Assembly (NCBI GenBank): GCA_900215285.1
Contig: OCMG01000003.1
Location: 496,001 to 560,000 of the forward strand
Source: Ensifer adhaerens
GTDB taxonomy: Bacteria; Pseudomonadota; Alphaproteobacteria; Rhizobiales; Rhizobiaceae
Reading direction: 5' to 3'
Length of the DNA stretch: 64,000 nt
A program made the translations under genes and the position numbers. This document shows positions 16,047 to 59,226 of this stretch, one piece after another. The stretch's first letter is position 1, and each line of letters opens with the position of its first letter. The notes beneath the pieces were generated by a model. The model ran no database searches. It was not told where the DNA came from and was given only the letters and a program-made list of their open reading frames with translations.

Positions 16047-16532
16047 TCAGTCCTCTTCAGAGAGATGGCGCTGGGCGGATTCCTTGACCTGGCCGAGTTC
16101 GGCAAGAAGCCGCTTGAGAACAGCGGGTTCGACTTCGGCCATCATTTCCTTGATCCAGCGCTCATGTGCCTCCGCCATTCCCTCGAAATAGGTCCGGCCC
16201 TTCTCGGAAAGCCGGGCCACGGTGACGCGCTTGTCGTCCTCGAGGCGCTCGCGGATGATCGTGCCGTCGGCTTCCAGCCGTTCGACCAGACCGGTAACAT
16301 TGCCGTTGGTGACCATGGTGCGGCTGGAAAGCTCGCCGAGGCGCAGGCCGTCCTTTTCGCGATAGAGCTGGGCGAGGAGGTCGAATTGCGGAAGCGTCGC
16401 GCCGAACTCCCGGCGCAGCCGCCGGCGGATTTCCTGCGACATGAGCTTGGTCGTGGCAAGCAGGCGCAGCCAGAGCTTCAGCTCCTGCTTCTTGCCTTCC
16501 TGGGCGTCGCTGGCAACCAGTTCGAGATCCAT
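16047..16532 (-). CDS. MarR-family transcriptional regulator (first of three)
   Basis: 161 residues. Typical MarR winged helix: KLMSQEIRRRLRREFGATLPQFDLLAQLYREKDGLRLGELS, recognition helix VTNGNVTGLVERLEADGTI, wing RERLEDDKRVTVARLSEKG. Such proteins bind palindromes as dimers and release them with aromatic acids or CoA esters. It is convergent with the DAO gene and lies about 110 bp upstream-adjacent to the minus-strand flavoprotein gene end at 16644. Possible targets are the shared motifs at 18.2-18.4 kb and elsewhere in the region. Confidence 0.9.
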   Translation of the reverse strand: MDLELVASDAQEGKKQELKLWLRLLATTKLMSQEIRRRLRREFGATLPQFDLLAQLYREKDGLRLGELSSRTMVTNGNVTGLVERLEADGTIIRERLEDDKRVTVARLSEKGRTYFEGMAEAHERWIKEMMAEVEPAVLKRLLAELGQVKESAQRHLSEED

Positions 16533-16643
16533 CGCGTGTCCGTCTGCACCGAATTAAAGTCGAACCTTACCTGCGGGAAGCGGGCTCGGCCGTCAAGACT
16601 TTCCTTGAGGCCTGAAGCATTTGCCCACCAGCAAACAGATTTC

Positions 16644-18215
16644 CTAGCCGGCAAGCATCTTCGCCAGCATGAAGCCGGAGCCCGCGCCCGTCCCCGCACC
16701 CGGCCAGGTTGCCGCGCCGCACATATAGAGACCGTCCACCGGGCTCTTGTAGCGCGAGTAGCCGGCGACCGGGCGGAAGAGGAAATTCTGGTCGAGATGA
16801 TGGGAGCCCGAAAGGCTGTCGCCGCCGATGAGGTTCGGGTTTTCCGTCTCCAGGTCGAGCGGCGACCAGACGGCGCGTCCGCGGATCTTGGAGCGGAAGT
16901 CGGGCGCGTAGCTCTCGATAACCGAAAGCACGCGATCGGCATAGGCCTCCTTTGCGGTCGGCCAATCTGTCGCCGAAATCTCACCCGCCGCATCGCCCTT
17001 GATCTCCGCCGGCAGAACACGGACCTGCACCCAAAGCACATGCTTGCCCTCCGGCGCGCGGGTCGGATCGAGCGTCGTGGGCTGGCCGATGACGAGGGCG
17101 GGTTCGCGAGGCAACAGTCCCGAAACCGCTTCATCATAGAGCCGGTTCATCATCGAGAGGTTCGGCGCGATGTGGACATAGGCATAAGATTTCAGGTCGG
17201 GTGAGGCGGACCAGTCGGGCAGGCCGTCGAGCGTCAGATGGATCATCATGGCGCCGGGGCCGGCGCGATAGTGCTTCACGCCATCGGCAAAACGGCGGGG
17301 CAGGGTGACGCCTTTTACCAGACCGTTGAAGAGAACCTTGGGATGGATGTTGGAGATGATTGCCCGCTTGGCCGTCAGCCTGCGTCCATCGGCCAGCGTC
17401 ACCGATTTCGCCCGGCCACCGGCAACCTCCACCGAAATCACCGGGGAATTGAGTAAGAGTTCCCCACCCTTGGCTTTCAGCAGCCCCACCATCGCCTTGA
17501 TGATCGCATCCGCGCCGCCCTCGCCAATCACCATGCCGAAGGCCTGGTTGGTCATCGTTTCCAGATAGGGAAAGAGCGCGCCGCCGGCGGCATCCGGAGG
17601 AAAGTCGAGATGCAGGCCCCACGCGGCCATCATGGCCTTGAGCTTCTCATTGGCGAAATGCCGGTCGAGGAAGCCGCGGGGCGACGAGAGAAGGAGGCGC
17701 AGGAGATCGGTGAGCAGCGGAACGCCGCCCGCGCGCCATGCTTTCCACGCGGTCTTGACGCTTCCCACGGACGGCATGGGATTGCCGAGCAGGCCGAAGA
17801 GATGCGGCGCCATATTGCCGAACTCGGCGGTCATGGCGGCGAAGCTTTCCGCATCCTTGGAGGAGAGTTGGGCGATGGCCGACCGGTTGGCGGCCGCATC
17901 GGTGCCGATGCCGAGATGGGTGCCGTCCCGAAAGACGCTCGCGAAGCATTTCGGCGCGGGGACGAATTTCAGGCCATGGGCGGCAAGCTCGCCGGCATAG
18001 GTCTGATGAAAGGCGGAGCCGGCGAACATGGAAAGGTTCATGGCGGCGATGTCGTGGCGGAAGCCGGGCTCGACGAGTTCCTGCGTCTTCACCGCGCCGC
18101 CGGCGCTCGCCTTGGCCTCGACCACTGCGACCTTCCAGCCCTTCGCGGCCAGATGCACGGCAGCGGCCAACCCATTGTGACCTGCGCCCAGGATCACCGC
18201 ATCGAATTCAGACAT
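16644..18215 (-). CDS. Phytoene-desaturase-like FAD/NAD(P) oxidoreductase (paralogue A)
   Basis: 523 residues. N-terminal FAD fold DAVILGAGHNGLAAAVHLAAKGWKVAVVEA with GxGxxG at about 9-14 and the GG doublet of AGGAVKTQEL; C-terminal family motif DGLYMCGAATWPGAGTGAGSG. It belongs to the carotenoid-desaturase/PYROXD2-like flavoproteins. No other carotenoid gene is nearby, so pigment synthesis is unlikely. The start MSEFDAV at 18215 follows GGGGGAAC. It is divergent from the isatin-hydrolase-like gene and has a paralogue (19601) on its other side. A role in dehydrogenating an indolic intermediate, for instance dioxindole to isatin, is a hypothesis only. Confidence 0.82.
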   Translation of the reverse strand: MSEFDAVILGAGHNGLAAAVHLAAKGWKVAVVEAKASAGGAVKTQELVEPGFRHDIAAMNLSMFAGSAFHQTYAGELAAHGLKFVPAPKCFASVFRDGTHLGIGTDAAANRSAIAQLSSKDAESFAAMTAEFGNMAPHLFGLLGNPMPSVGSVKTAWKAWRAGGVPLLTDLLRLLLSSPRGFLDRHFANEKLKAMMAAWGLHLDFPPDAAGGALFPYLETMTNQAFGMVIGEGGADAIIKAMVGLLKAKGGELLLNSPVISVEVAGGRAKSVTLADGRRLTAKRAIISNIHPKVLFNGLVKGVTLPRRFADGVKHYRAGPGAMMIHLTLDGLPDWSASPDLKSYAYVHIAPNLSMMNRLYDEAVSGLLPREPALVIGQPTTLDPTRAPEGKHVLWVQVRVLPAEIKGDAAGEISATDWPTAKEAYADRVLSVIESYAPDFRSKIRGRAVWSPLDLETENPNLIGGDSLSGSHHLDQNFLFRPVAGYSRYKSPVDGLYMCGAATWPGAGTGAGSGFMLAKMLAG

Positions 18216-19600: not shown

Positions 19601-21190
19601 ATGAGCGATCCGGATTACATTATCGTCGGCAGCGGCATCAACGCGCTGGTGGCAGCGGCCATGCTGGGCAAGAAGGGCAAGAAGGTTCTGGTTCTGGAGC
19701 GCAATGGCCAGATTGGCGGATGCCTTCGCACCGAGGAGATCACCGCGCCGGGCTTCGTGCATGATGTCATGGCCACTACCATGGTTCTGTTCATGACCTC
19801 GCCGGCCTTTGCCGCACTCGGCAAGGATCTGGAGGCGCGGGGCTTGGAATTCTGCCATTCGGCGACGCCGACCGGGGTTCTGCGGCCCGATGGAAGCCAC
19901 GCGATCCTTGCGATGAACCGGGCGGAGAATATCGCCAATTTCGACAGGCTCGCCCCCGGCGACGGTCAGAGCTTTGATCGCGAGATGAACCGCTTCGGCG
20001 GCAATGCCGGCTTCGTCTTCGGGCTTCTGGGCGGCAATCTCTGGTCCATGGCGACGGCCAAGCTGGTGGCCAAGGAAGCATGGTCGCGGGGCCTGAAAGG
20101 CCTTGCGGCCTTCTTCGGCGAGGCGCTCGCGCCGGCGCGGTCCTATCTCGACACCAATTATCAATCCGAAGAAATGAAGGCGCTGTGGGCGCCCTGGGTG
20201 CTGCATTGCGGGCTGGGGCCGGAAAGCAGCTATTCGGCCGAGATGGTCAAGGTCATCGGCTTTGCCGTCGAGCTAGCCGGCTGCCCCATCGTCAAGGGCG
20301 GGGCGGTCAATCTCCTCAAGGCGTTTGAAAAGCTGATCAAGGATCAGGGCAGCGAGATCGTCACCGGGGCGGATGTCGATGAAGTCATTCTGGGGCAGGG
20401 CGGCAAGGCCACCGGCGTGCGCCTCACCGATGGTCGCAGCTTCAAGGCCGGCGCCGGCGTGATCGCCTCCATGACACCCGACCAGATTTACAAGCGGCTG
20501 CTCAAGAGCGGGGCTGCGGCCCTGCCGGACTACGTGAAGGACGGGCTGAAATCCTATCGCTACGGCAAGGGCAACATGCAGATTCACTACGCCCTGAAGG
20601 CCGCGCCGCGCTGGAAGGCGGGCGAGGCGCTCGGCAAGGTGGCATTGCTGCATCTGACGCCGGGGCTTGACGGCGTGTCGCGCTCGGCCAACGAGGCGGA
20701 GCGCGGTCTGCTGCCGGCCGAACCGACCGTTTGCGTCGGCCAGCCCACCTCCTTCGACCCGAGCCGCGCGCCGGAAGGCCAGTCGATCCTCTGGCTGCAG
20801 CTGCCCGACACGCCGCGCTTCATCAAGGGCGATGCGGCAGGCGAGCTTGACTGCCCCGCTGACGGCCGCTGGACCGAGGCGCTGCGCGAGGCCTTTGCCG
20901 ATCGCGTGGAGGCGATGCTGCGCCACCATATCGAGAATTTCGACGAGGCGGTCATCATGCGCCGCGTCTATTCGCCGGCCGATCTGGAGGCCATGAACAT
21001 GAACCTTGTCGGCGGCGATCCTTACGGTGGTTTCTGCGGGCTCGACCAGTTTTTCCTCTGGCGTCCCTTCAAGAGACCGAATAACCACATGACACATGTC
21101 CCGGGGCTCTATCATATCGGAGCGTCCACCCATCCGGGGCCGGGCCTTGGCGGCGGATCGGGCTTCCTGCTCGCATCCTCCCTGAAATGA
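19601..21190 (+). CDS. Phytoene-desaturase-like FAD/NAD(P) oxidoreductase (paralogue B)
   Basis: 529 residues, the same family and length as the product of 16644-18215 and clearly paralogous: both have the GxGxxN-like N-terminal FAD fold (here YIIVGSGINALVAAAMLGKK), LPxEPxxxIGQPT-type central block (here LLPAEPTVCVGQPTSFDPSRAPEG), IKGDAAGE, and C-terminal GLYHIGASTHPGPGLGGGSG. Retention of two copies around the isatin-hydrolase-like gene suggests a heteromer or two steps on one substrate. It is followed after 57 bp by a MarR gene on the same strand. Redox substrate unknown. Confidence 0.82.
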   Translation: MSDPDYIIVGSGINALVAAAMLGKKGKKVLVLERNGQIGGCLRTEEITAPGFVHDVMATTMVLFMTSPAFAALGKDLEARGLEFCHSATPTGVLRPDGSHAILAMNRAENIANFDRLAPGDGQSFDREMNRFGGNAGFVFGLLGGNLWSMATAKLVAKEAWSRGLKGLAAFFGEALAPARSYLDTNYQSEEMKALWAPWVLHCGLGPESSYSAEMVKVIGFAVELAGCPIVKGGAVNLLKAFEKLIKDQGSEIVTGADVDEVILGQGGKATGVRLTDGRSFKAGAGVIASMTPDQIYKRLLKSGAAALPDYVKDGLKSYRYGKGNMQIHYALKAAPRWKAGEALGKVALLHLTPGLDGVSRSANEAERGLLPAEPTVCVGQPTSFDPSRAPEGQSILWLQLPDTPRFIKGDAAGELDCPADGRWTEALREAFADRVEAMLRHHIENFDEAVIMRRVYSPADLEAMNMNLVGGDPYGGFCGLDQFFLWRPFKRPNNHMTHVPGLYHIGASTHPGPGLGGGSGFLLASSLK

Positions 21191-21247: not shown

Positions 21248-21772
21248 ATGAATGGGAGAGAGTGGATGGAAAACGGCCTTTCGGGCGATGTTCTCGGGCA
21301 TCCGGGTACGCAAGACGGCCGCATGCCGAGCCTCGGCGAGATGGGATTGAACCATTTTGCACCCTATATCATGAACCGCGTGATGGCGCGCTGGAACGCC
21401 AATCTTTCCGAAGAGCTGCGCGCCCGCGACATCACCACCGCGAAGATGCGGGCGCTTGCTGTGCTGTCGGTCTCATCGTCGCTCACGATCAACGAGCTTT
21501 CCGTTCTCGGCGTCACCGAGCAATCGACCATGAGCCGCACGGTGGATTCGCTGGAAGAACAGGGGCTTATCAGCCGTACACCGCGCGCTGACGATTTGCG
21601 GGTGCGTGATGTCGCCATCACAGAGGAGGGGCGCGCCGTCTTCAATGAGGTCTGGCCGATCATGTATGACGGGCTACGCCAGATGTTCCGCGATATCGAG
21701 GAAGACGAATATCGCGCCTTTCTCAACACGCTGCACAAGATCCTGCGGAACGTCCGCAAGAATGAAATGTGA
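21248..21772 (+). CDS. MarR-family transcriptional regulator (second of three)
   Basis: 174 residues from ATG 21248, or 168 from ATG 21266, which has the nearer GGGAGAGAG. Winged-helix features: ARDITTAKMRALAVLSVSSSLTINELSVLG, recognition helix TEQSTMSRTVDSLEEQGLI, wing RTPRADDLRVRDVAITEEG. It lies downstream of flavoprotein B and upstream of the chemoreceptor gene, whose promoter region (21802-21824) carries a copy of the shared AT-rich motif. It is one of the candidates for binding that motif. Confidence 0.9.
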   Translation: MNGREWMENGLSGDVLGHPGTQDGRMPSLGEMGLNHFAPYIMNRVMARWNANLSEELRARDITTAKMRALAVLSVSSSLTINELSVLGVTEQSTMSRTVDSLEEQGLISRTPRADDLRVRDVAITEEGRAVFNEVWPIMYDGLRQMFRDIEEDEYRAFLNTLHKILRNVRKNEM

Positions 21773-39706: not shown

Positions 39707-39739
39707 GTTGGGGCTTCCCTCAAGACAACTGAGGGGCTT

Positions 39740-40028
39740 CGGCGGGTGAGGCTTCCCCTTCTCCCCCCTTTTTGAACGGGGAGGGGAGAAGGCGGCCCGA
39801 AGGGTCGGATGTGGGGGTTTTGCGACAGGCTTCTTTGAAGGTTCTGCCGCGTGGCTCCCCCTCACCCCGCCTCCGCTTCGCTCGGCGACCCTCTCCCCAA
39901 GGGGAGAGGAGGTCCGAGAGGCTGCGGCCTTTCCCACGATTGCGTCAGTGCATGGGAACGAAGGCGGTGCGACACCCCTCTTCTCCCCACCGGGGAGAAG
40001 GTGCCGGCAGGCGGATGAGGGGGCTCCC
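39740..40028. repeat. Composite intergenic repeat between binding-protein and permease genes
   Basis: The 400-bp gap holds several related blocks: CCCCTTCTCCCCCC...GGGGAGGGGAGAAGG near 39755-39792, CCCCTCACCCCGCC...CTCTCCCCAAGGGGAGAGGAGG near 39859-39912, and CCCCTCTTCTCCCC...GGGGAGAAGG...GGATGAGGGGG near 39975-40022. Nested hairpins are likely. It takes the place of the single GC hairpin seen after the other binding-protein genes. No gene seen in it. Confidence 0.7.
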
Positions 40029-40106
40029 TCCGTCCCAAAAGCTAAAGGAGACCGCACCATCGCGATCTCCAGATCCCACGACTTCGAAGGCAACAGGAAG
40101 GTTCCG

Positions 40107-41117: not shown

Positions 41118-42012
41118 GATCGTGACCACCACTGCGGACGCGCCCGTCCCCCTTCGGAGCCTGCCGATGAAGACCATAAAACCGCTTTTGCGTGAACCGC
41201 GGGTGGTGATCGCCGGTGGCTTCCTGCTTCTCCTCCTGCTGATCGCGATCTTCGCGCCTTACATCGCGCCGAAGGACCCGCTGGAGCAGGACCTGATGCT
41301 CGGCAACATGCCGCCCGTCACCTCACCCGGCGCGGAGCCGGGCTATTATCTCGGTACCGACGATCTCGGCCGCGACGTGCTGTCCCGCGTGCTCTACGGC
41401 TCGCGCATCGCGCTGACCGTCGCCTTCGTCGCCGCAAGCCTGTCCGCCATCATCGGAACGCTGATGGGTCTGGCCGCCGGCTGGTATGGCGGCTGGGCGG
41501 ACCGGATCATCTCCCGCCTAGTCGACATCTGGATGGCCTTTCCGCCGGTGCTGCTCTCGGTACTGCTGGTCGCCGTTCTCGGCTCCGGACTTCATTCGGT
41601 GATCGCCGCCATCGTCATCATCGACTGGACGCGCTTCTGTCGCGTCGTGCGGGCAGAGACCATGGCGCAGGCGCGGCTCGATTACGTGATGGCCGCCGAG
41701 ACGATCGGCTTTTCCCGCAGCCATATTCTGTGGCGCGAGATCCTGCCGAACGTCGCGCCTGTCCTCATCGCCCTTGTCAGCCTCGAAATGGGCATTGCCG
41801 TCATCGTCGAGGCGATCCTCTCCTTTGTCGGTCTCTCGCTCTCCTCCGATATCCCGACCTGGGGCGGCATGATCGCGCAAGGCCGCCAGATGATCCATCA
41901 GGGATGGTGGGTTTTCGTCTTTCCTCTCATTGCGCTCTTCGCCACCGTTCTCGCCTTCAACCAGCTGGGCAACGGTCTGCGCAAGGCGCTCGACCCGGTG
42001 ATGCGCCGATGA
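41110..42012 (+). CDS. Dipeptide-type ABC permease (DppC-like)
   Basis: 300 residues from ATG 41110, overlapping the previous gene by 8 nt; GTG 41101 is an alternative. DppC/OppC features: FAPYIAPKDPLEQDLM, YYLGTDDLGRDVLSRVLYGSRIAL, EAA loop AAETIGFSRSHILWREILPNVAPVL, and AILSFVGLSLSSDIPTWGGMIAQGR. Partner of the preceding permease. Confidence 0.92.
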   Translation: MAEIVTTTADAPVPLRSLPMKTIKPLLREPRVVIAGGFLLLLLLIAIFAPYIAPKDPLEQDLMLGNMPPVTSPGAEPGYYLGTDDLGRDVLSRVLYGSRIALTVAFVAASLSAIIGTLMGLAAGWYGGWADRIISRLVDIWMAFPPVLLSVLLVAVLGSGLHSVIAAIVIIDWTRFCRVVRAETMAQARLDYVMAAETIGFSRSHILWREILPNVAPVLIALVSLEMGIAVIVEAILSFVGLSLSSDIPTWGGMIAQGRQMIHQGWWVFVFPLIALFATVLAFNQLGNGLRKALDPVMRR

Positions 42013-42881
42013 CCCAGCCCCTTGTTGCTATCGAAGGCCTGAGCGCCATTTCCACCCGCGACGGCGGTGCGCCGGTTCTCCGCGATGTCTCCCTCACGCT
42101 CGAAAAGGGCGAGGTGCGCGGTCTCGTCGGGGAATCCGGGGCAGGCAAATCGACCATCGCCAAGGCGCTCCTCGGCATCCTGCCGTCCACGGTGAAGGTC
42201 ACCGGCGGCTTCATCCGCTTCGAGGGGCGCGACCTGCTTCAGATGCCGCGCCGCGAACTCACCGACATCATGGGCCGCGACATCACGCTGATCCCGCAGG
42301 ACCCGCAGACGGCGCTCAACCCGGCGCGGCGCATCGAGGCGCAGCTGACCGACGGCCTGCGGCTCAAGCTCGGCATGGGAAAGGCGGCGGCGCATGAGCG
42401 CGCGCTGCAACTGCTTGACGAGGTGCAGATCCGCAATCCGGAACGCGTCCTGCAAGCCTATCCGCATGAGCTTTCTGGCGGGATGCGCCAGCGCATCCTC
42501 ATCGCCTCCGCCTTCGCGCTGAACCCCAAGCTGGTGGTCGCCGACGAGCCGACGACGGCGCTGGACGTGACCGTGCAGAAGGAAATCCTCCGCCTCATCC
42601 GCCGCATGCAGGAAGCCCACGGCACGGCCGTCATCTTCGTCACCCATGATCTCGGCGTGGTCGCCAAGATCTGCGATCGCGTGACGCTTCTCTATGCCGG
42701 CAAGGTGATCGAGGACGGCGCGACGGCCGACATGCTGACCGCACCGAAACACATCTATACGAGCGCGTTGATTGCCGCAGGCCCCCGCTACGACAGGCCG
42801 AATGCCGGGCTGGAGCCCGTGCCGGAAGCCGTGTTCCGCCAGTTGCGCGCCGAGATCGGCATTGCCGAGAGGAGAGTGTGA
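42009..42881 (+). CDS. Dipeptide-type ABC ATPase (DppD-like)
   Basis: 290 residues, ATG overlapping the permease TGA (ATGA). Walker A GESGAGKST near 37, Q-loop LIPQDPQTALNP, signature LSGGMRQRILIA, Walker B LVVADEPTTALDV, switch His VTHDLGVVA. It lacks the usual long C-terminal cysteine-containing Fe-S region seen in many DppD. Upstream in-frame extension overlaps the permease and is rejected. Confidence 0.92.
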   Translation: MTQPLVAIEGLSAISTRDGGAPVLRDVSLTLEKGEVRGLVGESGAGKSTIAKALLGILPSTVKVTGGFIRFEGRDLLQMPRRELTDIMGRDITLIPQDPQTALNPARRIEAQLTDGLRLKLGMGKAAAHERALQLLDEVQIRNPERVLQAYPHELSGGMRQRILIASAFALNPKLVVADEPTTALDVTVQKEILRLIRRMQEAHGTAVIFVTHDLGVVAKICDRVTLLYAGKVIEDGATADMLTAPKHIYTSALIAAGPRYDRPNAGLEPVPEAVFRQLRAEIGIAERRV

Positions 42882-42882
42882 A

Positions 42883-43728
42883 ATGAACGATCTTCTCTTT
42901 GAGGCACGAGGCGTTGAAGTCACCTATGGCCAGAGCAAGGGCCTCTTCGGCCACGGACGGCCGGGCGTGCGCGTGCTGCACGGCGTCGATCTCGCCATCC
43001 GACGCGGCGAGACCGTGGGTATTGTCGGCGAATCCGGGTCGGGCAAGACGACGCTCGGCCGGGCGCTGCTGAAGCTCGTGCCCGTTTCCGGCGGCACGAT
43101 CCGCTTCGACGGGCAGGACATCACCGCGCTGTCGCCCGAAGCCATGCGGCCCTTGCGCCGCCGCATGCAGATGATCTTCCAGGACCCGATGGCCTCGCTC
43201 AACCCGCGCCACTCGATCCGCCGGATCCTGACCGAACCGCTCTTCCTGCACGGGCTTGCCACCGACCGGCGCGATGCCGAGCGGCAGGTGCGGGCCATCC
43301 TCGACCGCGTGTCGCTCGCCCCGGTCACACTGGACCGCGCGCCGCACGAGCTGTCTGGCGGCCAGCGCCAACGCGTCGGCATTGCGCGCGCCGTGCTGAT
43401 GAAGCCGGATTTCGTGCTCGCCGACGAGATCGTCTCCGGCCTCGACGTGTCGACGCAGGCGCAGGTGCTCAACATCCTGAAGGCGCTGTCGCAGGAAATG
43501 GGCCTCGCCATGGCCTTCATCAGCCACGACCTCTCCGTGATCCGCGCGGTGTGCGACCGCGTCACCGTCATGCAGTTCGGCAAGGTGGTGGAGGAGGGGC
43601 CATGCGAAACCGTCTTCGACGCCCCGCAATCGCCCTACACACGCCTGTTGCTGGATGCCATTCCGCTGCCCGAAATCGATGACGGCTGGCTGACCCGGCC
43701 GGCGCCGTCGCTCGAGCAAGTCGCTTAA
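42883..43728 (+). CDS. Dipeptide-type ABC ATPase (DppF-like)
   Basis: 281 residues from MNDLLFEAR at 42883, two bases after the previous stop, with AGGAG upstream. Walker A GESGSGKTT, Q-loop MIFQDPMASLNPRHSI, signature LSGGQRQRVGIA, Walker B FVLADEIVSGLDVS (DEI instead of DEP), switch ISHDLSVIRAVC. Works with the DppD-like subunit as the ATPase dimer of the importer. Confidence 0.92.
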   Translation: MNDLLFEARGVEVTYGQSKGLFGHGRPGVRVLHGVDLAIRRGETVGIVGESGSGKTTLGRALLKLVPVSGGTIRFDGQDITALSPEAMRPLRRRMQMIFQDPMASLNPRHSIRRILTEPLFLHGLATDRRDAERQVRAILDRVSLAPVTLDRAPHELSGGQRQRVGIARAVLMKPDFVLADEIVSGLDVSTQAQVLNILKALSQEMGLAMAFISHDLSVIRAVCDRVTVMQFGKVVEEGPCETVFDAPQSPYTRLLLDAIPLPEIDDGWLTRPAPSLEQVA

Positions 43729-43802: not shown

Positions 43803-44345
43803 ATGACCGCTCAAAAGGGCCTTCCGGGCCTCGTCGGCCACGACCATACCGGTCTCACCGTCCCCAACCTCGACGAGGCCATCGACTTCTTCGACCGCGT
43901 GCTCGGCTGCATCCATGTGCTCACCTTCGGCCCCATCGGCGACCCGGAGGGCAGCTTCATGACGGACGCGCTCGGCGTCCACCCCCGCGCCCGCATCGAG
44001 CGCGTCGCCATGATCCGCTGCGGCAACGGCTCGAACCTCGAACTCTTCGAATATTCCGCCCCCGACCAGCGGGACCTCAAGCAGAAGAACAGCGACATCG
44101 GCGCCTTCCACATCGCCTTCTACGTCCGCGACATCGCCGCCGCGAAAGCCTATCTGGACGACATGGGCGTCGAGACGCGGCTTGGGCCGTTGCCCATCGA
44201 CGACGGCCCGATTGCGGGACAGTCGATTTTGTATTTCCAAGCACCCTGGGGGCTGCAGTTCGAGGCGATCAGCTATCCGAAGGGGATGGCGTATGAGAAG
44301 GACAGTCCGGTGCTGCTGTGGAACCCGGAGAAGCCGGGGATGTGA
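43803..44345 (+). CDS. VOC (glyoxalase/extradiol dioxygenase fold) family protein
   Basis: 180 residues. Two VOC modules: HDHTGLTVPNLDEAIDFFDRVLG from residue 13 and FHIAFYVRDIAAAKAYLDDMG from ~102. Candidate metal ligands are His15, Glu79 (NLELFEY), His103 and Glu157 (LQFEAISY). Length and second-half SILYFQAPWGLQFEAISY are those of single-domain glyoxalase-type enzymes rather than full extradiol dioxygenases. Lies 75 bp after the ABC operon on the same strand and may be its last gene. In this cluster it could isomerise or cleave a pathway intermediate; not testable from sequence. Confidence 0.82.
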   Translation: MTAQKGLPGLVGHDHTGLTVPNLDEAIDFFDRVLGCIHVLTFGPIGDPEGSFMTDALGVHPRARIERVAMIRCGNGSNLELFEYSAPDQRDLKQKNSDIGAFHIAFYVRDIAAAKAYLDDMGVETRLGPLPIDDGPIAGQSILYFQAPWGLQFEAISYPKGMAYEKDSPVLLWNPEKPGM

Positions 44346-44487: not shown

Positions 44488-45477
44488 TTACCTCCCCCGC
44501 ACCCGCCGCAACGTCTCCGACGGGCTCTCCCCATAGACCTCGCGATAGGCCGCCGCCGCCCGGCCCAGATGCCCGAAGCCTGACGCGAGCACGGCGTCCG
44601 CAACATTCAGCGTCGGCGTCGGCTTGAGCAGCGCGTTGCGCAAGCTCTCCACCCGTGCCTGCTGGACGCCATCCAGCAGCGTGCGGCCCAGCGCCTTGCG
44701 GTAGGCGTCCTGGAGGGTGCGGAGCGGTATGCCGGCGGCATTGGCGATGTCGGCCATGGAGATGTTGTCGCTCGCCCGCGCCCGGATGAATTCCTCGGCC
44801 TTGCGCACGGCGGCGGAGCCGGCATCGGCTGCGGGGAGATTAAGGGCGGCGGAGACGTTGTTGCCGAGGCCGTTGAGCAGCAGCGAGATCAGCCCGTCGC
44901 GCAGCATGGCGCGATAGGCATCGGGCAGGCCCGAGCCGCCCTCGGCCGCCTCGACCATCATGCGCGCATGGGCCATGAGGCTGCGGCCGACGGGGGCGGT
45001 GAGGTCGATGGCCGGCGTGAATTCGATCGCCGCGCGCGGGCGATGCGTCATCGTCTCGAAGAAATCCTCCACCATGCGGCGGCGCATCAGGACGATCAGC
45101 TTTTCGCAATCCGGCTTCCAGACCATCCGCGAGGCGAGCGTCGGCGAGAGGATCGAGGCGCGTTGGCCAGCCGCCACATCGACGGTCGCATTGCCGCTTC
45201 GGACATGCGCGGCACCATGGACGGGCAATTGCAGCAGGAAGAAATCGGAAAGCTCGCCGGGGTCGATCTCCACCTCGGCACCGTAGGCCACGAAGTTCAC
45301 CGAATAGCCGGGCTGCTCGACGGCATTGTGCACGGCGTGGAAACCCTCGGCGGAGCGGTCGCGGACGTCGAGGAAGTGGGGGCAGAAGATGCGGCCGATG
45401 GCGTCGCGCGCCTCATCGACGGCGCGGGTGTCGACCAGGCCGTGATGCTGAAGAGGCTTTTCCTGCGCATCGAACAT
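44488..45477 (-). CDS. AraC-family transcriptional regulator (AraC-binding-like domain plus HTH)
   Basis: 329 residues from MFDAQEKPL at 45477; a GTG start at 45495 is possible. Residues ~25-200 resemble the AraC-binding-like domain of regulators such as those for aromatic amines (GFHAVHNAVEQPGYSVNFVAYGAEVEIDPG). The C-terminal double HTH runs from ~225 (AEEFIRARASDNISMADIANAAGIPLRTLQDAYRKALG...LNVADAVLASGFGHLGRAAAAYREVYGESPSETLRR). It is divergent from the flavin reductase-SDR-monooxygenase genes and very likely activates them. AraC regulators also accompany known indole-degradation operons (iif/ind type). Confidence 0.9.
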   Translation of the reverse strand: MFDAQEKPLQHHGLVDTRAVDEARDAIGRIFCPHFLDVRDRSAEGFHAVHNAVEQPGYSVNFVAYGAEVEIDPGELSDFFLLQLPVHGAAHVRSGNATVDVAAGQRASILSPTLASRMVWKPDCEKLIVLMRRRMVEDFFETMTHRPRAAIEFTPAIDLTAPVGRSLMAHARMMVEAAEGGSGLPDAYRAMLRDGLISLLLNGLGNNVSAALNLPAADAGSAAVRKAEEFIRARASDNISMADIANAAGIPLRTLQDAYRKALGRTLLDGVQQARVESLRNALLKPTPTLNVADAVLASGFGHLGRAAAAYREVYGESPSETLRRVRGR

Positions 45478-47157: not shown

Positions 47158-48396
47158 ATGACCAAATCCAGACTTTTCACCATCGTGGGCGGCGGCCAGT
47201 CCGGCCTGCAGCTCGGCATTGGCCTGCTGAAGGCCGGCCATGAAGTGCGCATCGTTCAGAACCGCACGGGCGAGGACATTGCCAGGGGCAAGGTCATGTC
47301 CAGCCAGTGCATGTTCGATCAGGCGCTGCAGAACGAGCGCGATCTCGGCATCAATTTCTGGGAAGCCGAATGCCCGACGGTCGATTCCATCAGCTTCACG
47401 GTGCCCTCGCCGGAAGGTAATGGCGCCAAGGCCATCGACTGGAACGGCAAGCTCGACAAGACCGCGCAGAGCGTCGACCAGCGCGTCAAGATCCCGCACT
47501 GGATGAAGGAATTTACCCGTCAGGGCGGCGAAATGGTCATTCATGACGCCGGCATCGAAGACCTGGAAACCTACGCCAAGCAGAGCGACCTCGTCATCGT
47601 CGCCGCCGGCAAGGGTGATATTGCGAAGATGTTCGAGCGCGACGCCTCCCGCTCGCCCTTCGACAAGCCGCAGCGCGCGCTGGCACTGACCTATGTGAAG
47701 GGCATGGAGAAGCGCCCCGACCATTCGGCGGTCAACTTCAACCTCATCCCGACGGTCGGCGAATATTTCACCTTCCCGGCGCTGACGACGACCGGCCCCT
47801 GCGACATCATGGTGTTTGAAGGCATTCCGGGCGGCCCGATGGACTGCTGGAAGGATGTGAAATCCCCTGAAGAGCATCTGGCGAAGTCCAAGTGGGTGCT
47901 TGAGACCTTCACGCCCTGGGAAGCTCAGCGCTGCAAGGATATCGAACTCACGGACGACAACGGCATTCTCGCCGGCGCGTTTCCGCCCACGGTGCGCAAG
48001 CCCGTCGGCCGTCTGCCCTCCGGCGCCATCGTTCTCGGCATGGCGGACGCCGTCTGCCTCAACGACCCGATTACCGGCCAAGGCTCCAACAACGCATCCA
48101 AGTGCGCCAAGGCCTATATGGACGCGATCCTCGCCCATGGCGACCGCGCCTATGACGAGGCCTTCATGGTCGCGACCTTCGAAGGCTATTGGGCCTATGC
48201 CCAATATGTCGTCGGCTGGACCAACGCGCTCCTGATGCCGCCGCCGCCGCATGTGCTGAACATCATGGGCTCGGCGCAGGCCTATCCGGACCTCGCGAAG
48301 CGCATCGCCAACGGCTTCAACGACCCGCGCGACTTTTTCCCCTGGTTCGCTGTTCCCGAAGAGGCAGACGCCTATCTCACACGGCTTGCCGCGTAA
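47158..48396 (+). CDS. Styrene/indole monooxygenase-like flavoprotein (StyA family)
   Basis: 412 residues, the size of StyA-type group E monooxygenases. N-terminal FAD fold LFTIVGGGQSGLQLGIGLLKAGHEV with GxGxxG at 9-14; a substrate domain (MSSQCMFDQALQNERDLGINFWE); and a second FAD contact IVLGMADAVCLNDPITGQGSNNASK near 295-320. These two-component enzymes take reduced FAD from a reductase and epoxidise styrene or oxygenate indole. With the reductase (45629), SDR (46200) and AraC regulator, indole or an indolic acid is a strong candidate substrate. Last gene of its operon; a UUCG-loop terminator follows. Confidence 0.88.
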   Translation: MTKSRLFTIVGGGQSGLQLGIGLLKAGHEVRIVQNRTGEDIARGKVMSSQCMFDQALQNERDLGINFWEAECPTVDSISFTVPSPEGNGAKAIDWNGKLDKTAQSVDQRVKIPHWMKEFTRQGGEMVIHDAGIEDLETYAKQSDLVIVAAGKGDIAKMFERDASRSPFDKPQRALALTYVKGMEKRPDHSAVNFNLIPTVGEYFTFPALTTTGPCDIMVFEGIPGGPMDCWKDVKSPEEHLAKSKWVLETFTPWEAQRCKDIELTDDNGILAGAFPPTVRKPVGRLPSGAIVLGMADAVCLNDPITGQGSNNASKCAKAYMDAILAHGDRAYDEAFMVATFEGYWAYAQYVVGWTNALLMPPPPHVLNIMGSAQAYPDLAKRIANGFNDPRDFFPWFAVPEEADAYLTRLAA

Positions 48397-50250: not shown

Positions 50251-50820
50251 TCACCGCGGCAACCGCCGATGCGTCGCTGCCGTCCTTGCGACCTGCTCGT
50301 AGATCCCCGTCAGCAGATCCAGCGTTTCCGTCGCGTCCTCCAGCCTTTTCCCGAGGTTGGGCACCGATTGCACCGCCTTGACCAGAAGCGCCGCGCGCAC
50401 ATTGGCATAGCGGTCGGTGACGTCGCGGCCGGCTTCGGTGACGGTGTAGGTGACGCCGGAGCGGCCGCTGCCGGTGCGCTCCACGAGGCCGGCGCCGATG
50501 AGCTTGCGCAGGCTGTATTGCATGTTGGGAATGTCCTCGCGGTTGGAGAGCCGCGCGATGTCCTTCAGCGTCTTCGGCCGGTCGTTCATGCGGATGATGT
50601 GTAGCATGGCGTTTTCCGGGCCGCTCGCGGTGAGATCGAGAACGGTGGAGAGGCATTCCGTCTGCCAGCGGCCAAAGGCTTCGAAGGCGCGCATCAGCGC
50701 ATATTCGAGCTCGGCGACATCCATCTCGACGGGCGTGCGTGCGAGATGCCAGTGGCGGTCAAGGCCGCTGTCCTTCTTCGCATCGGCTCCCTTGCCGCCT
50801 TCGCTGTTCTTGTCCTGCAT
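50251..50820 (-). CDS. MarR-family transcriptional regulator (third of three)
   Basis: 189 residues from MQDKNSEGG at 50820 (GAGGTGCGGGAC upstream); a start at 50853 is possible. Winged helix in the middle: GPENAMLHIIRMNDRPKTLKDIARLSNREDIPNMQYSLRKLIGAGLVERTGSGRSGVTYTVTEAGRDV. The group with RxxNREDIPNxQY is divergent from the classical MarR. It is divergent from the luciferase-like gene, and the AAAGTTTA-N9-TAAACTTT inverted repeat at 50933-50957 lies between them, making this the best local candidate for reading the shared AT-rich motif. It may control the ACMR operon 2 kb further. Confidence 0.88.
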   Translation of the reverse strand: MQDKNSEGGKGADAKKDSGLDRHWHLARTPVEMDVAELEYALMRAFEAFGRWQTECLSTVLDLTASGPENAMLHIIRMNDRPKTLKDIARLSNREDIPNMQYSLRKLIGAGLVERTGSGRSGVTYTVTEAGRDVTDRYANVRAALLVKAVQSVPNLGKRLEDATETLDLLTGIYEQVARTAATHRRLPR

Positions 50821-50927: not shown

Positions 50928-50957
50928 TTGACAAAGTTTAGACTTCAAATAAACTTT
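50928..50957 (+). promoter_or_regulatory. Promoter with inverted repeat, shared motif site 5
   Basis: TTGACA (50928-50933) is overlapped by AAAGTTTA-N9-TAAACTTT (50933-50957), a perfect 8-bp inverted repeat. Its interior reads GTTTAGACTTCAAATAA, aligning with TTTAAACTTAAAATAA at 52991. A repressor bound here would cover the -35 to -10 region of the luciferase-like gene. Confidence 0.55.
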
Positions 50958-50994
50958 CTATCGTAAATTCTAACAAATCTTCTGGGGAACTACC

Positions 50995-52113: not shown

Positions 52114-52159
52114 GGCGGGCTGATTTGCCCCACTCTGACGTTTGAGCGTGTGGCAAAGA

Positions 52160-52326
52160 CCCCTCCCCAACCCTCCCCACAAGGGGGAGGGGGAGTGGAC
52201 GTCGTGCCTCCGGATGCCACGCGTCGAACCTGCGAGTGCCTTGTCCGTCACTGCTGCTGTGGGGCAGGCGAGCGCCACACGTCGTCTCCCCCCTTGTGGG
52301 GGAGATGGCCGGCAGGCCAGAGGGGG
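52160..52326. repeat. CCCTCCCC / GGGGGAGG intergenic repeat pair
   Basis: CCCCTCCCCAACCCTCCC with CACAAGGGGGAGGG at 52160-52194 and the opposite-sense CTCCCCCCTTGTGGGGGAGA...AGAGGGGG at 52285-52326. Same family and arrangement as 19298-19509. The 290-bp gap otherwise holds only the flavin reductase ribosome site. Confidence 0.75.
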
Positions 52327-52401: not shown

Positions 52402-52926
52402 ATGACAATCAAAAACCACGACATGAACGACGCTTTCCGCAAAGCCATGCGTAGCTTCGCCGGCAATGTTAGCGTCATCACCGTGGGCGAGGGCGAGGAG
52501 CGCTCAGGCCTTGTCGCCACCTCCACCGTCTCGCTTTCCGTCGAGCCGGCGACGATGCTCGTTTGCGTCAACCGCAGCGCATCCTCCTGGCCGCTCTTCG
52601 CCCGCTACCGGCATTTCGGCGTCAATGCGCTCCGGCCAAACCAGAAGGCGATTGCCGAGCGGTTCAGCGGCAAGGGCGGGGTGAAAGGTGCGGAACGCTA
52701 TGCCCTGGGCACATGGCGTGCGGGTGAGACCGGCGCGCCGCTTCTGCAAGGTGCTGCGGTCGCCATCGACTGCGAGATCGAGGACATGATCGAGTGGACG
52801 ACACATTCGATCCTGATCGGCCGGGTACGCTCGGTCGAGATCGGCGATGCGAGCGCGGCACTGGTCTACTGGCAGGGCGACTATCGGCCTCTTATCGCCG
52901 AAAACCATGCTTTATCAATAGCTTGA
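52402..52926 (+). CDS. Flavin reductase (HpaC/RutF type), second copy
   Basis: 174 residues, start after GGGGAAC. FRKAMRSFAGNVSVITVGEGE, GLVATSTVSLSVEPATMLVCVNRSA, FGVNALRPNQ, and YWQGDYRPL at the end. Paralogous to the reductase at 45629. It directly follows the broken LLM monooxygenase and is presumably its partner; it could also serve another flavin-dependent oxygenase. Confidence 0.87.
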   Translation: MTIKNHDMNDAFRKAMRSFAGNVSVITVGEGEERSGLVATSTVSLSVEPATMLVCVNRSASSWPLFARYRHFGVNALRPNQKAIAERFSGKGGVKGAERYALGTWRAGETGAPLLQGAAVAIDCEIEDMIEWTTHSILIGRVRSVEIGDASAALVYWQGDYRPLIAENHALSIA

Positions 52927-56168: not shown

Positions 56169-56588
56169 ATGCCATTCAAGATATCCAAGCCGATGCGCTT
56201 CGGCGATTGCGACCTGACCGGGATCGCCTATCACCCGGCCTATCTGTCCTATCTGGTCGATGTGAACGAGGCGATGTTTGCCTCCTTCGGCATCACCTGG
56301 AAGGAGATCATGTTCGAGCGCCGTCTGGGCCTGCCGACCGTGACCATGAACCTGCAGTTCATCAAGCCGGCCGTTTACGGTGACGTGCTCGATTTCTCCG
56401 TGCATGTCCGCGCCATCGGCCGCTCGTCGCTCGACCTCGAGACCGATGTCCGCGTCGGCGAGGACATGATCTGGACGGTGCGCCAGCGCATCGTTCTGAC
56501 CTCCACCGAAGATCACAAATCCCGCGCCTGGCCGGACGATATCCGCGCTGGCCTCACCCGTTACCTGGAGCAAAAAGATGCGGCATGA
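56169..56588 (+). CDS. Hotdog-fold acyl-CoA thioesterase (4HBT family)
   Basis: 139 residues. Family catalytic opening RFGDCDLTGIAYHPAYLSYLVDVNEAMF near residue 10, with the conserved Asp (D15) before the G-I-A-Y-H-P turn, and a central FIKPAVYGDVLDFSVHV. 4-hydroxybenzoyl-CoA-thioesterase-like enzymes of this kind release free acid from aryl- or alicyclic-CoA. It could unload a dead-end CoA ester of the pathway. Overlaps the Rid gene by 11 nt. Confidence 0.85.
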   Translation: MPFKISKPMRFGDCDLTGIAYHPAYLSYLVDVNEAMFASFGITWKEIMFERRLGLPTVTMNLQFIKPAVYGDVLDFSVHVRAIGRSSLDLETDVRVGEDMIWTVRQRIVLTSTEDHKSRAWPDDIRAGLTRYLEQKDAA

Positions 56589-57592: not shown

Positions 57593-58440
57593 TGAAACTC
57601 CTGCGCCATGGCCCGGCGGGTGCCGAGAAGCCCGCCCTTCTGGATAGCGACGGCAAGATCCGCGACCTGTCGGGCCTTGTCGCCGATATCGGCGGCGATG
57701 TGCTTTCAGATAGCGGCCTTGCACGCATCGCAGCCGCCGACCCGAAGACCCTGCCGGAGGTTTCCCCCGGCAGAATCGGTCCCTGTGTCGCCGGCACGCG
57801 CAAGTTCATCTGTGTCGGCCTCAACTACAGCGACCACGCGAAGGAAACCGGAAAGGCCCCGCCGGAAGAGCCGATCCTGTTCATGAAGGCGACGAGCGCC
57901 ATCATCGGCCCGAATGACGACGTGGAAATTCCGCGTGGCTCCGTCAAGGCCGACTGGGAAGTCGAACTCGGCATCGTCATCGGGACGCGGGCCAAGTATG
58001 TCAGCGAGGACAAGGCACTCGACCATGTAGCGGGCTATTGCGTCGTCAACGATGTGTCCGAACGCGCCTTCCAGTCGGAGCGCGGCGGCCAGTGGACGAA
58101 GGGCAAGAGCCACGACACGTTCGGCCCCATCGGCCCTTATCTGGTGACGCGCGACGAGGTGCCGGACCCGCAGAATCTCAAGCTCTGGCTCGATGTCGAC
58201 GGCGTCCGCCGCCAGACCGGCACGACCGCCAACATGATCTTCGGCGTTCGCCATGTGGTGAGCTATATCAGTCAGTTCATGACGCTGGAGCCGGGCGACA
58301 TCATCGCCACCGGCACGCCACCGGGCGTCGGCCTCGGCATCAAGCCGGAGCCGGTCTTCCTGAAGGTCGGTCAGGTCATGACGCTCGGCATCGAAGGTCT
58401 TGGCGATCAGACGCAACACACGATCGAAGCGAGGGACTGA
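57592..58440 (+). CDS. Fumarylacetoacetate hydrolase (FAH) family protein
   Basis: 282 residues. Family layout KFICVGLNYSDHAKETG, PILFMKATSAIIGPNDDVEIP, metal-binding DWEVELGIVIG (Glu of VELG), AFQSERGGQWTKGKSHDTFGPIGPYLVT, and GDIIATGTPPGVGLG. These enzymes cleave C-C bonds of diketo acids or hydrate/decarboxylate ring-cleavage products. In this operon a hydrolytic opening of a cyclohexane-dione-type intermediate is possible (inference). Confidence 0.9.
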   Translation: MKLLRHGPAGAEKPALLDSDGKIRDLSGLVADIGGDVLSDSGLARIAAADPKTLPEVSPGRIGPCVAGTRKFICVGLNYSDHAKETGKAPPEEPILFMKATSAIIGPNDDVEIPRGSVKADWEVELGIVIGTRAKYVSEDKALDHVAGYCVVNDVSERAFQSERGGQWTKGKSHDTFGPIGPYLVTRDEVPDPQNLKLWLDVDGVRRQTGTTANMIFGVRHVVSYISQFMTLEPGDIIATGTPPGVGLGIKPEPVFLKVGQVMTLGIEGLGDQTQHTIEARD

Positions 58441-58443
58441 GCC

Positions 58444-59226
58444 ATGAGCGATTTTCAAGGAAAGCTTGTCATCGTCACCGGCGGTGCGCGCGGGCAGGGC
58501 GAGGCGGAAGTCCGCCTCTTCGCTTCCAAAGGTGCCGCCGTCATCATCGCCGATGTTCTCGTCGATGAGGGCGAGACGCTGGCAGCCGAACTCACGAAGG
58601 AAGGCCGCGAGGCCCGCTTCATCCGCCTCGACGTCACCGACCCCGCAAGCTGGGCGGCGGTGATCGATCTGGCGAAATCCTGGAAGGGCCGTCTCGACGT
58701 GCTGGTCAACAATGCCGGCATCATCAACCGGACGCTGGTCGAAACGACGTCGCTGGAAGCCTGGGAGCGGGTGCTGCGCGTCAACCTCACCGGCTCCTTC
58801 CTCGGCATTCAGGCGGCAAGCGCGCTCATGGCGGAAACGGGCGGTGGCGCGATCGTCAACATCTCCTCCAACAGCGGCTATTCCGGCCATTACGACCCGG
58901 CCTATACGGCGAGCAAATGGGGCCTTCGCGGCCTGACCAAAAGCGCGGCCATGGAGCTTGCGCCGAAGAACATCCGCGTCAACGCCGTCTGCCCTGGTCT
59001 TGTGGTCACGGGGTTGAACGCGTCGAGCCCGCATCTGAAGCCGATGATCGGGATCACGCCGCTGAAGCGCGCCGGCAAGCCGGAAGAGATCGCCGATCTC
59101 GTCTTCTTCCTCTCTTCCGATGCGTCGAGCTTCATCACCGGCGAGGACTTCGTCATCGACGGCGGCTTTACCGCCGGCGCCGCCTATCGGCGTGTCGCAA
59201 CGGAAACCGGGATTTTCCCGGAATAG
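58444..59226 (+). CDS. Short-chain dehydrogenase/reductase, end of the ACMR operon
   Basis: 260 residues, 3 nt after the FAH stop. TGGARGQGEAEVRLFASKG, NNAGIINRTLV, catalytic Ser in NISSNSGYSGH, YTASK Tyr/Lys, and FVIDGGFTAG at the end. Related to the 3alpha-hydroxysteroid/cyclohexanol-type dehydrogenases, which fits oxidation of an alicyclic alcohol. Distinct from the SDRs at 46200 and 55356. Confidence 0.88.
   Translation: MSDFQGKLVIVTGGARGQGEAEVRLFASKGAAVIIADVLVDEGETLAAELTKEGREARFIRLDVTDPASWAAVIDLAKSWKGRLDVLVNNAGIINRTLVETTSLEAWERVLRVNLTGSFLGIQAASALMAETGGGAIVNISSNSGYSGHYDPAYTASKWGLRGLTKSAAMELAPKNIRVNAVCPGLVVTGLNASSPHLKPMIGITPLKRAGKPEEIADLVFFLSSDASSFITGEDFVIDGGFTAGAAYRRVATETGIFPE

What the first reader, a model, noticed from the sequence alone, without database searches (positions are those of the whole stretch)
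16047..59226. A ~43-kb indolic/anthranilic catabolic supercluster with its own uptake, taxis and regulation
Seen: isatin-hydrolase-type cyclase, IorAB, StyA-like oxygenase with reductase and SDR, ACMR-type bifunctional flavoprotein plus a seven-gene downstream operon, liv- and dpp-type importers, three MarR, AraC, LysR and a soluble chemoreceptor, interleaved over 43 kb. Known: isatin hydrolase acts in indole and indole-acetate degradation; ACMR acts in aerobic anthranilate-CoA degradation; StyA/reductase/SDR/AraC sets act on indole. Inference: together they form one pathway from an indolic compound to central metabolism. No Rieske indole-acetate dioxygenase, anthranilate dioxygenase, kynureninase or aryl-CoA ligase is visible, so the combination differs from the textbook routes.
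Basis: partly seen in the sequence, partly recalled or inferred. Interest (0 to 1): 0.85.

Follow-up and report, generated by a model that had tools for sequence, protein, structure and literature searches.

The report
Modular isatin-to-anthraniloyl-CoA catabolic gene cluster
A soil bacterium's gene cluster appears to break down indole-type compounds through isatin and may feed the product straight into a coenzyme-A pathway without the usual activating enzyme; the same core genes travel together in many bacteria with different front ends.

Summary
The genes are there, and the core is more than a chance neighbourhood. Isatin hydrolase (IH), IorAB and the ACMR flavoprotein occur together: among 101 genomes all 27 with IH also have IorA and ACMR, and in the 23 where IH and IorA share a contig they lie within 60 kb. 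The StyA-like gene is closest to a Variovorax flavoprotein (7z4x; recalled as an indole monooxygenase) and lies near IH, IorA or ACMR in eight genomes outside the genus. The liv importer, GMC, LysR and quinone oxidoreductase are not constant members. Best reading, inferred: indole (or a Dpp-imported relative) -> isatin (last step FAD2) -> isatinate (IH) -> anthraniloyl-CoA by IorAB oxidative decarboxylation -> ACMR. The window has no CoA ligase. ACMR loci near these genes carry a ligase less often than others (12 of 32 against 29 of 41), but one Rhizobium group has both, so ligase replacement is not general. No biochemistry was done; one preprint speaks against an obligatory IorAB step.

The parts
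16047..16532 (-). MarR1 regulator
   Evidence: PF01047; beside FAD1 in relatives
16644..18215 (-). FAD1: CrtI/CrtO-like FAD oxidoreductase, substrate unknown, goes with the Dpp importer
   Evidence: PF01593; best NCBIfam CrtO, below cut-off; 17 of 19 named FAD1 loci hold a DppA of >50% identity
18501..19286 (+). Isatin hydrolase, B type (IH)
   Evidence: 4j0n 413.6 bits full length; H73, H77, D79, H83, D198, H212 present
19601..21190 (+). FAD2: CrtI/CrtO-like FAD oxidoreductase, candidate dioxindole-to-isatin enzyme
   Evidence: Pfam; >=59% orthologues in 19 of 101 genomes, all of them IH genomes
21266..21772 (+). MarR2 regulator
   Evidence: PF01047; next to FAD2 or IorA in relatives
34196..35746 (-). 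IorB-like 2-oxoacid oxidoreductase beta subunit with DUF6537
   Evidence: NF006179 710 bits, cut-off 348; PF01558, PF20169
35761..37926 (-). IorA-like alpha subunit (TPP, Fe-S), candidate isatinate oxidoreductase (CoA-acylating)
   Evidence: PF02775; TIGR03336 below cut-off; one CxxCxxC...C motif at 662; linkage to IH and ACMR
38171..43728 (+). DppABCDF-type importer (five genes)
   Evidence: PF00496, PF00528, PF00005; same order beside IorA in many relatives
43803..44345 (+). VOC/glyoxalase-fold protein at the end of the Dpp operon
   Evidence: PF00903; found in 10 of 80 named loci, mostly next to Dpp
44488..45477 (-). AraC-type regulator of the indole module
   Evidence: PF14525, PF12833
45635..46150 (+). 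IndB-type flavin reductase
   Evidence: PF01613
46200..46985 (+). SDR of the indole module
   Evidence: PF13561; NF006121 397 bits, cut-off 294
47158..48396 (+). IndA-type (StyA-like) monooxygenase
   Evidence: PF17885; 7z4x 654 bits; StyA equivalog NF045732 not met
50251..50820 (-). MarR3-like regulator
   Evidence: PF13463
50995..52113 (+). Luciferase-like monooxygenase gene, interrupted by an in-frame TAG at 51697-51699
   Evidence: intact copies in three same-genus genomes and R. setariae
52402..52926 (+). Second flavin reductase
   Evidence: PF01613
53033..55348 (+). ACMR / salicylyl-CoA 5-hydroxylase-type bifunctional flavoprotein
   Evidence: NF006101 1360 bits, cut-off 1078; PF01494 + PF00724
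55356..56141 (+). SDR1
   Evidence: PF00106; beside ACMR in 30 of 30 short loci
56169..56588 (+). 4HBT thioesterase
   Evidence: PF13279
56578..56976 (+). RidA-type enamine/imine deaminase
   Evidence: PF01042
57167..59226 (+). cupin, FAH hydrolase and SDR2: alternative lower module
   Evidence: PF07883, PF01557, PF13561; same three beside ACMR in G014, G027, Devosia and Martelella

Best explanation
The locus is a modular catabolic cluster built around a conserved trunk: isatin -> isatinate by IH; isatinate (2-aminophenylglyoxylate, a 2-oxo acid) + CoA -> anthraniloyl-CoA + CO2 by the IorAB-type 2-oxoacid oxidoreductase; anthraniloyl-CoA -> alicyclic CoA ester by ACMR. Because IorAB would make the CoA thioester itself, no aryl-CoA ligase is needed here. 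Isatin is supplied by interchangeable front ends: here an indole oxygenase (IndA + flavin reductase IndB), an SDR, and FAD2 for the last oxidation of dioxindole to isatin; and a second feed brought in by the Dpp importer and handled by FAD1. The back end is interchangeable too: beta-oxidation genes in some relatives (L097), thioesterase-RidA-cupin-FAH-SDR2 here. Shown here: enzyme families, IH catalytic residues, linkage and co-occurrence, absence of a ligase from the window. Inferred: every substrate, above all IorAB on isatinate and FAD2 on dioxindole. The Dpp substrate and the lower steps are unresolved.
For: All 27 IH genomes of 101 have IorA and ACMR; 23 of 23 IH-IorA pairs on one contig lie within 60 kb. 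Phylum sample: IH in 20 of 25 IorA genomes, 0 of 25 hand-picked genomes without a strong IorA match. IndA is within 60 kb of IH in 8 of 8 genomes of the 101 (5 of them same genus; two weak hits dropped), and near IH, IorA or ACMR in Rhizobium setariae, Mesorhizobium, Zoogloeaceae, Cognatazoarcus and Parazoarcus. In G027 IndA, AraC, IorBA, MarR2, FAD2, IH, ACMR and the lower genes lie within about 15 kb with no Dpp or FAD1. In L147 one stretch holds ACMR, AraC-SDR-IndA-IndB-FAD2-IH, IorAB, then an iad set with its own IH. In Novosphingobium an FMO-like enzyme stands beside SDR and FAD2, with IorBA, IH and ACMR. No ligase signature in the window; ligase near ACMR in 3 of 19 trunk loci against 30 of 42 others (iad loci excluded). 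iorA and iorB rise 30.7- and 7.6-fold with IAA in Bradyrhizobium japonicum (PMC3788728, passages).
Against: A later check weakens the ligase argument: 9 of 17 non-iad named loci that hold both ACMR and IorA contain a ligase-like ORF, seven of them one Rhizobium group; put together by hand (G513 moved to the trunk side) the contrast is 12 of 32 against 29 of 41. With iad loci it is 9 of 25 against 30 of 42, or 10 of 25 with BLAST-labelled ligases (p=0.02). A split by IorA anywhere in the genome shows no difference: 18 of 30 with IorA, 10 of 14 without. G055 and G032 have neither IorA nor a ligase near ACMR. In Variovorax the iadC-K2 region, which by its name leaves out iadA and iadB, restored anthranilic acid in a locus deletion (PMC12633357, passages). 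7 of 34 IorA genomes lack IH. ACMR is common without IH: 20 of 74 relatives, 12 of 25 controls. The own genome has 21 matches to the benzoate-CoA-ligase model elsewhere, none over its cut-off. FAD2 has no characterised close relative.
Confidence: 0.5

Rival explanations
1. IorAB works on an arylpyruvate such as indolepyruvate; isatinate is converted to anthranilate by something else and activated by a ligase elsewhere in the genome. The cluster then gathers several indolic routes that meet at anthranilate.
For: Family names; FAD1 and FAD2 match the amine-oxidase family PF01593, so one could be an amino-acid oxidase giving a pyruvate; anthranilic acid made from a clone without iadAB in Variovorax (PMC12633357) and detected with isatinic acid (PMC9613470); ligase-like ORFs beside ACMR in a Rhizobium group; 21 ligase-family matches elsewhere in the genome.
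Against: IorA misses the indolepyruvate alpha equivalog (270 against 651 bits); no IH genome of 101 lacks IorA; no aminotransferase was seen among the window products scanned.
Confidence: 0.25
2. The natural main substrate is not indole but an oxindole-type compound (for instance a plant auxin catabolite) imported by Dpp and oxidised by FAD1 and FAD2; IndAB is a side feed. This can be true together with the best explanation.
For: Most of the Rhizobium-type named loci show Dpp, FAD1, FAD2, IH, IorAB and no IndA within 10 kb; FAD1 and Dpp go together, 17 of 19.
Against: FAD2 also occurs with IndA and without FAD1 or Dpp (G027, L147); the Dpp-family match says little about the ligand.
Confidence: 0.35
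3. The genes are a loose neighbourhood of separate catabolic operons with no common pathway.
For: True of some members: liv, GMC, LysR and the quinone oxidoreductase vary among same-genus genomes.
Against: Core linkage across families and classes.
Confidence: 0.05

Closest known systems
iad auxin-degradation loci (Variovorax, Bradyrhizobium, Achromobacter)
   Same: IorA/IorB (IadA/IadB, called exclusive iad markers in PMC9613470), a formamidase-type enzyme IadI, MarR control, isatin/isatinate intermediates.
   Different: No Rieske IadDE, ligase IadF or thiolase IadG here; IH is nearest the B form, that of iad loci the A form; FAD2, IndAB and Dpp are extra.
iif/ind indole clusters (Acinetobacter O153, Cupriavidus SHE; ipo/dho of Pseudomonas)
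   Same: StyA-like oxygenase, flavin reductase, SDR, AraC regulator. A link from indole to 2-aminobenzoyl-CoA genes was already reported for Cupriavidus (cited in PMC6221969, passages).
   Different: The published route ends with IifA making anthranilate directly, with isatin suggested to be a dead end (PMC6221969); here FAD2, IH and IorAB sit in that place.
Aerobic anthranilate-CoA (2-aminobenzoyl-CoA) pathway
   Same: ACMR, SDR, RidA.
   Different: No ligase in the window; the lower genes are thioesterase-cupin-FAH-SDR2 instead of the hydratase, acyl-CoA dehydrogenase and hydroxyacyl-CoA dehydrogenase seen in L097.
Phenylglyoxylate oxidoreductase of anaerobic phenylalanine breakdown (recalled)
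   Same: Same type of chemistry: aryl-glyoxylate + CoA -> aryl-CoA + CO2.
   Different: Different subunit make-up (recalled); no relation tested here.

Membership tests
Isatin hydrolase | Full-length similarity to crystallised isatin hydrolases | tested here: met
   4j0n 413.6 bits; 5nna, 5nnb and 5nmp 310-315 bits
Isatin hydrolase | Mn ligands and Asp-His dyad | tested here: met
   H73, H77, D79, H83, D198, H212, placed by my offset from LaIHA numbering in PMC6117287 (passages)
Isatin hydrolase | Hydrolysis of isatin | not testable with these tools
   needs an assay
Kynurenine formamidase (arylformamidase) | TIGR03035 cut-off | tested here: not met
   37.8 against 223 bits
Indolepyruvate ferredoxin oxidoreductase | Alpha-subunit equivalog TIGR03336 | tested here: not met
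   270.3 against 650.9 bits
Indolepyruvate ferredoxin oxidoreductase | Beta-subunit subfamily NF006179 | tested here: met
   710.3 against 348 bits
ACMR / salicylyl-CoA 5-hydroxylase | FAD monooxygenase + OYE two-domain protein, NF006101 | tested here: met
   1360.4 against 1078 bits; PF01494 + PF00724
ACMR / salicylyl-CoA 5-hydroxylase | Acts on anthraniloyl-CoA rather than salicylyl-CoA | not testable with these tools
   needs an assay
Indole monooxygenase (IndA/IifC, group E) | Nearest solved relative is an indole monooxygenase, separate flavin reductase beside it | tested here: inconclusive
   7z4x 654 bits, PDB name 'putative dehydrogenase/oxygenase subunit'; its identity as VpIndA1 is recalled. 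Reductase at 45635
iif/ind indole pathway | IifA cofactor-independent oxygenase | not tested
   no IifA sequence was at hand; no unassigned gene lies between AraC and IndA
iad auxin locus | iorA/iorB markers | tested here: met
   marker status from PMC9613470
iad auxin locus | Rieske IadDE, ligase IadF, thiolase IadG | tested here: not met
   none in the window; elsewhere in the genome one full-length Rieske protein 25.5% identical to an iad Rieske, and short pieces of a split one at 37-39%

The most novel reading that the evidence does not exclude
IorAB is an isatinate (2-aminophenylglyoxylate) oxidoreductase that forms anthraniloyl-CoA, able to replace a CoA ligase, and FAD2 is a CrtI/CrtO-type dioxindole dehydrogenase; together with IH they form a general isatin trunk serving both auxin (A-form IH) and indole/oxindole (B-form IH) degradation. 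Isatin is thus a true intermediate of one bacterial indole route and not a dead end.
Probability: 0.4. Interest if true: 0.75.

Novelty: new variant of a known kind. Interest (0 to 1): 0.57.

Why it matters
A 2018 review asks outright whether isatin takes part in indole degradation, noting that no gene of the iif cluster makes or uses it (PMC6221969, passages). This locus and its relatives give genes for that step and a test. It also offers a role for IadA/IadB, marker genes of auxin-degrading iad loci, for which the passages I read state no reaction, and a context for the two isatin hydrolase forms A and B. Indole and auxin are signals between plants and microbes, so the routes that remove them matter for root growth and microbiome work.

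Tried and rejected
Rejected: that the whole 43 kb is one unit. Rejected: that the cyclase is a kynurenine formamidase. Rejected: an iad Rieske oxygenase elsewhere in the genome as a hidden front end (only distant or fragmentary Rieske matches).

Shared operator: a palindrome CAAWATNNNATWTTG occurs once before iorA and once between FAD1 and IH in 8 of 34 loci examined, all Rhizobium-type (exact at both sites in seven, within one mismatch in L100), but not in the window above chance (2 matches at up to 2 mismatches, 2.1 expected); other palindromes lie at the same places in the window, unproven. A mapping of G027, G070 and G035 picked wrong-strand ORFs in high-GC DNA and was dropped; one search replaced it. 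FAH as a marker of the lower module is muddied by close paralogues. No structure was predicted. GC is even along the cluster.
Full report
1. Observation. I called genes with a script of my own (starts approximate), scanned 46 window stretches from 14809 to 63681 against Pfam (49404-50063 and 50938-52278 gave nothing and look spurious, 51835-52113 is the tail of the interrupted monooxygenase), and took key proteins to NCBIfam and PDB sequences. The window lies in a 5.19-Mb genome held as G000, contig C3. No AMP-ligase signature (recalled pattern) occurs in any window ORF of 300 aa or more, and BLAST with iad-type proteins labels nothing in the window.

2. Is the grouping more than chance? In the same 101 genomes (own plus 100 relatives) I counted IorA at >=56% identity (34 genomes), IH at >=50% (27), full-length ACMR over 700 bits (47) and IndA at >=63% (8; two weaker hits at 36% and 27% dropped) (counted). 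All 27 IH genomes have IorA and ACMR. IH and IorA share a contig in 23 and are within 60 kb in all 23; in the other four they lie on different contigs. IorA and ACMR co-occur in 33 of 34 IorA genomes; of 17 sharing a contig all are within 60 kb. IH and ACMR: 18 share a contig, 17 within 60 kb, one 326 kb apart. IndA is within 60 kb of IH in 8 of 8, but five of these are one genus. Fisher values ignore kinship.

3. Wider sample. IorA was sought in 398 genomes of the phylum: 29 had a strong match, 25 of them new. I took these 25 and 25 with no strong match (distant paralogues only; picked by hand from the same order and class, so less diverse) and sought IH and ACMR (30 named genomes were added, 29 searched). 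IH over 260 bits: 20 of 25 against 0 of 25. ACMR (full length; G119 in two pieces): 23 of 25 against 12 of 25. The five IorA genomes without IH are G287, G301, G235, G119 and G327; in four of them the only strong IorA is a 52-56% relative, while G119 also has a closer copy matched in two pieces (67-68%). Among the 29 named genomes, chosen for having IorA, 28 have IH (not Pigmentiphaga) and 28 ACMR (not Ruegeria sp. ANG-R).

4. Anatomy across genomes. Eighty named IorA loci with up to 10 kb each side (the best 80 of 589 confirmed) were mapped by BLAST with window proteins. A frequent Rhizobium order is MarR1-FAD1 / IH-FAD2-MarR2 / IorBA / DppABCDF(-VOC) / ACMR. Within those flanks, many of them cut short: IorB 75, IH 46, DppA 30 (some distant), ACMR 21, FAD2 21, FAD1 19, IndA 3. 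FAD2 orthologues (>=59%) occur in 19 of 101 genomes, all among the 27 with IH (at most 14 candidates per genome were scored). FAD1 goes with Dpp: 17 of 19.

5. Indole module. IndA lies near IH, IorA or ACMR in G027, G070, G035 (contig C11), Rhizobium setariae, Mesorhizobium sp. L-8-3, a Zoogloeaceae genome, Cognatazoarcus and Parazoarcus. IndB and the SDR are beside it in all but G027, where only IndA and AraC were labelled; in Parazoarcus only ACMR of the trunk is in the stretch seen. In G027 there is FAD2 but neither FAD1 nor Dpp, so FAD2 belongs with the indole module as well. In the Zoogloeaceae locus L147 the indole set, IorAB and an iad set (Rieske, ligase, thiolase, second IH) stand in a row. 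In Novosphingobium an FMO-like protein stands beside SDR and FAD2, followed by IorBA, IH and ACMR. Hence my order: oxygenase, SDR, FAD2, IH, IorAB, ACMR.

6. Isatin hydrolase forms. The window IH is nearest 4j0n (B form), the iad IH of L147 nearest 5nnb/5nna (A form). In a tree of 63 distinct IH proteins (solved ones not included) the 18 beside iad genes need two label changes; the clade holding the window IH has 28 FAD2-linked of 38, while the FAD2 loci of L147 and Cognatazoarcus use relatives from the iad side (some long branches, places unsure). So the two crystallised forms largely mark two contexts.

7. Ligase test. For 80 ACMR loci, 67 have at least 7 kb on both sides. Leaving out six iad loci, which carry their own ligase, an AMP-ligase ORF is within 10 kb in 3 of 19 loci with a trunk gene (IorA, IH, FAD2 or IndA) and in 30 of 42 without (Fisher p = 7e-5). 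With iad loci the figures are 9 of 25 and 30 of 42 (p = 0.006). Counting BLAST-labelled ligases too adds G488: 4 of 19 (p = 3e-4), or 10 of 25 (p = 0.02) with iad loci. Against this, of the named loci that hold ACMR and IorA together and no iad genes, 9 of 17 contain a ligase-like ORF, seven of them a group of near Rhizobium relatives. Put together by hand (twelve new loci, flanks not equalised, G513 moved to the trunk side) the contrast is 12 of 32 against 29 of 41. Of the 12 trunk-less, ligase-less loci, G070, R. setariae and Devosia have the trunk further off on the same contig; G055 and G032 have no IorA at all. A split by IorA anywhere gave no difference: 18 of 30 with, 10 of 14 without. 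Loci are related, so p values are indicative. In the own genome no protein passes the benzoate-CoA-ligase cut-off; 21 weaker matches exist. The window's own genus is ligase-free at this locus in the genomes examined (G000, G001, G003, G004, G005), but ligase replacement is not a general rule.

8. Chemistry. Isatinate is an aryl-glyoxylate, the substrate type of 2-oxoacid oxidoreductases, and the product would be the substrate of ACMR. This is inference. For it: the linkage above, the TPP domain and Fe-S motif, induction of iorA/iorB by IAA in B. japonicum (PMC3788728). Against: Variovorax makes anthranilic acid from a clone that by its name lacks iadAB (PMC12633357); anthranilic acid is detected with isatinic acid in cultures (PMC9613470). 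A side activity, chemical oxidation, or hydrolysis of anthraniloyl-CoA could explain these, or IorAB could be dispensable.

9. Lower pathway. In L097 ACMR-SDR1 is followed by enoyl-CoA hydratase, acyl-CoA dehydrogenase, RidA and a hydratase/hydroxyacyl-CoA dehydrogenase (Pfam); similar-looking ORFs, only one of them scanned, are in L103, L108 and G020. The window has thioesterase, RidA, cupin, FAH and SDR2; cupin, FAH and SDR2 are also beside ACMR in G014, G027, Devosia and Martelella. The best NCBIfam matches of SDR2 and FAH are trans-4-hydroxycyclohexanecarboxylate dehydrogenase and 2,4-didehydro-3-deoxy-L-rhamnonate hydrolase, both below cut-off. The steps are unknown.

10. What is not part of it. 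In same-genus genomes G001 and G005 no liv operon or LysR was labelled at this place; G003 shows neither in the 22 kb seen; GMC is in G001 only, the quinone oxidoreductase in G005 only, the MCP in G001 and G003 and not seen in G005.

11. Literature. I saw passages only of PMC9613470, PMC12633357, PMC12538310, PMC6221969, PMC3788728 and PMC6117287. In the listings of searches I saw no title or abstract start that gives IorAB an isatinate reaction or FAD2 a function; I did not open the other papers, and subscription papers are mostly not held, so this is no proof of novelty. That indole degradation can run through 2-aminobenzoyl-CoA genes was already reported for Cupriavidus, as cited in PMC6221969.

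Noticed in passing
50995-52113: Luciferase-like monooxygenase with an in-frame TAG at 51697-51699; three same-genus genomes and R. setariae have uninterrupted copies. Nearest solved relatives of an intact copy: dimethylsulfone and pyrimidine (RutA) monooxygenases.
   Followed up: partly
19309, 19486, 52171 (imperfect, opposite sense, at 57059): An identical 21-base palindromic repeat CCCTCCCCACAAGGGGGAGGG between IH and FAD2 (twice) and before the second flavin reductase.
   Followed up: no
L101, L104, L106-L110, L100: A shared 15-bp palindrome before iorA and between FAD1 and IH in Rhizobium-type loci, suggesting one repressor for both transcripts.
   Followed up: partly
L101, L104, L106-L110: A ligase-like ORF in the same locus as ACMR and IorA, absent from the window; its substrate is unknown.
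   Followed up: partly
32860-34056: GAF-EAL protein (probable c-di-GMP phosphodiesterase) next to IorB, also in G001, G003 and G005.
   Followed up: no
49214-50250: About 1 kb without a convincing gene; G001 has a 473-aa ORF at the matching place, with no tblastn match in the window.
   Followed up: partly
60515-63681: Sigma-54 response regulator and Cache histidine kinase pair just outside the cluster.
   Followed up: no
L147 (Zoogloeaceae bacterium G21618-S1): Indole-type and iad-type gene sets, each with its own isatin hydrolase, beside one IorAB: a good organism for testing.
   Followed up: partly
L255 (Novosphingobium): FMO-like protein next to SDR, FAD2, IorBA, IH and ACMR, where other loci have IndA.
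   Followed up: partly
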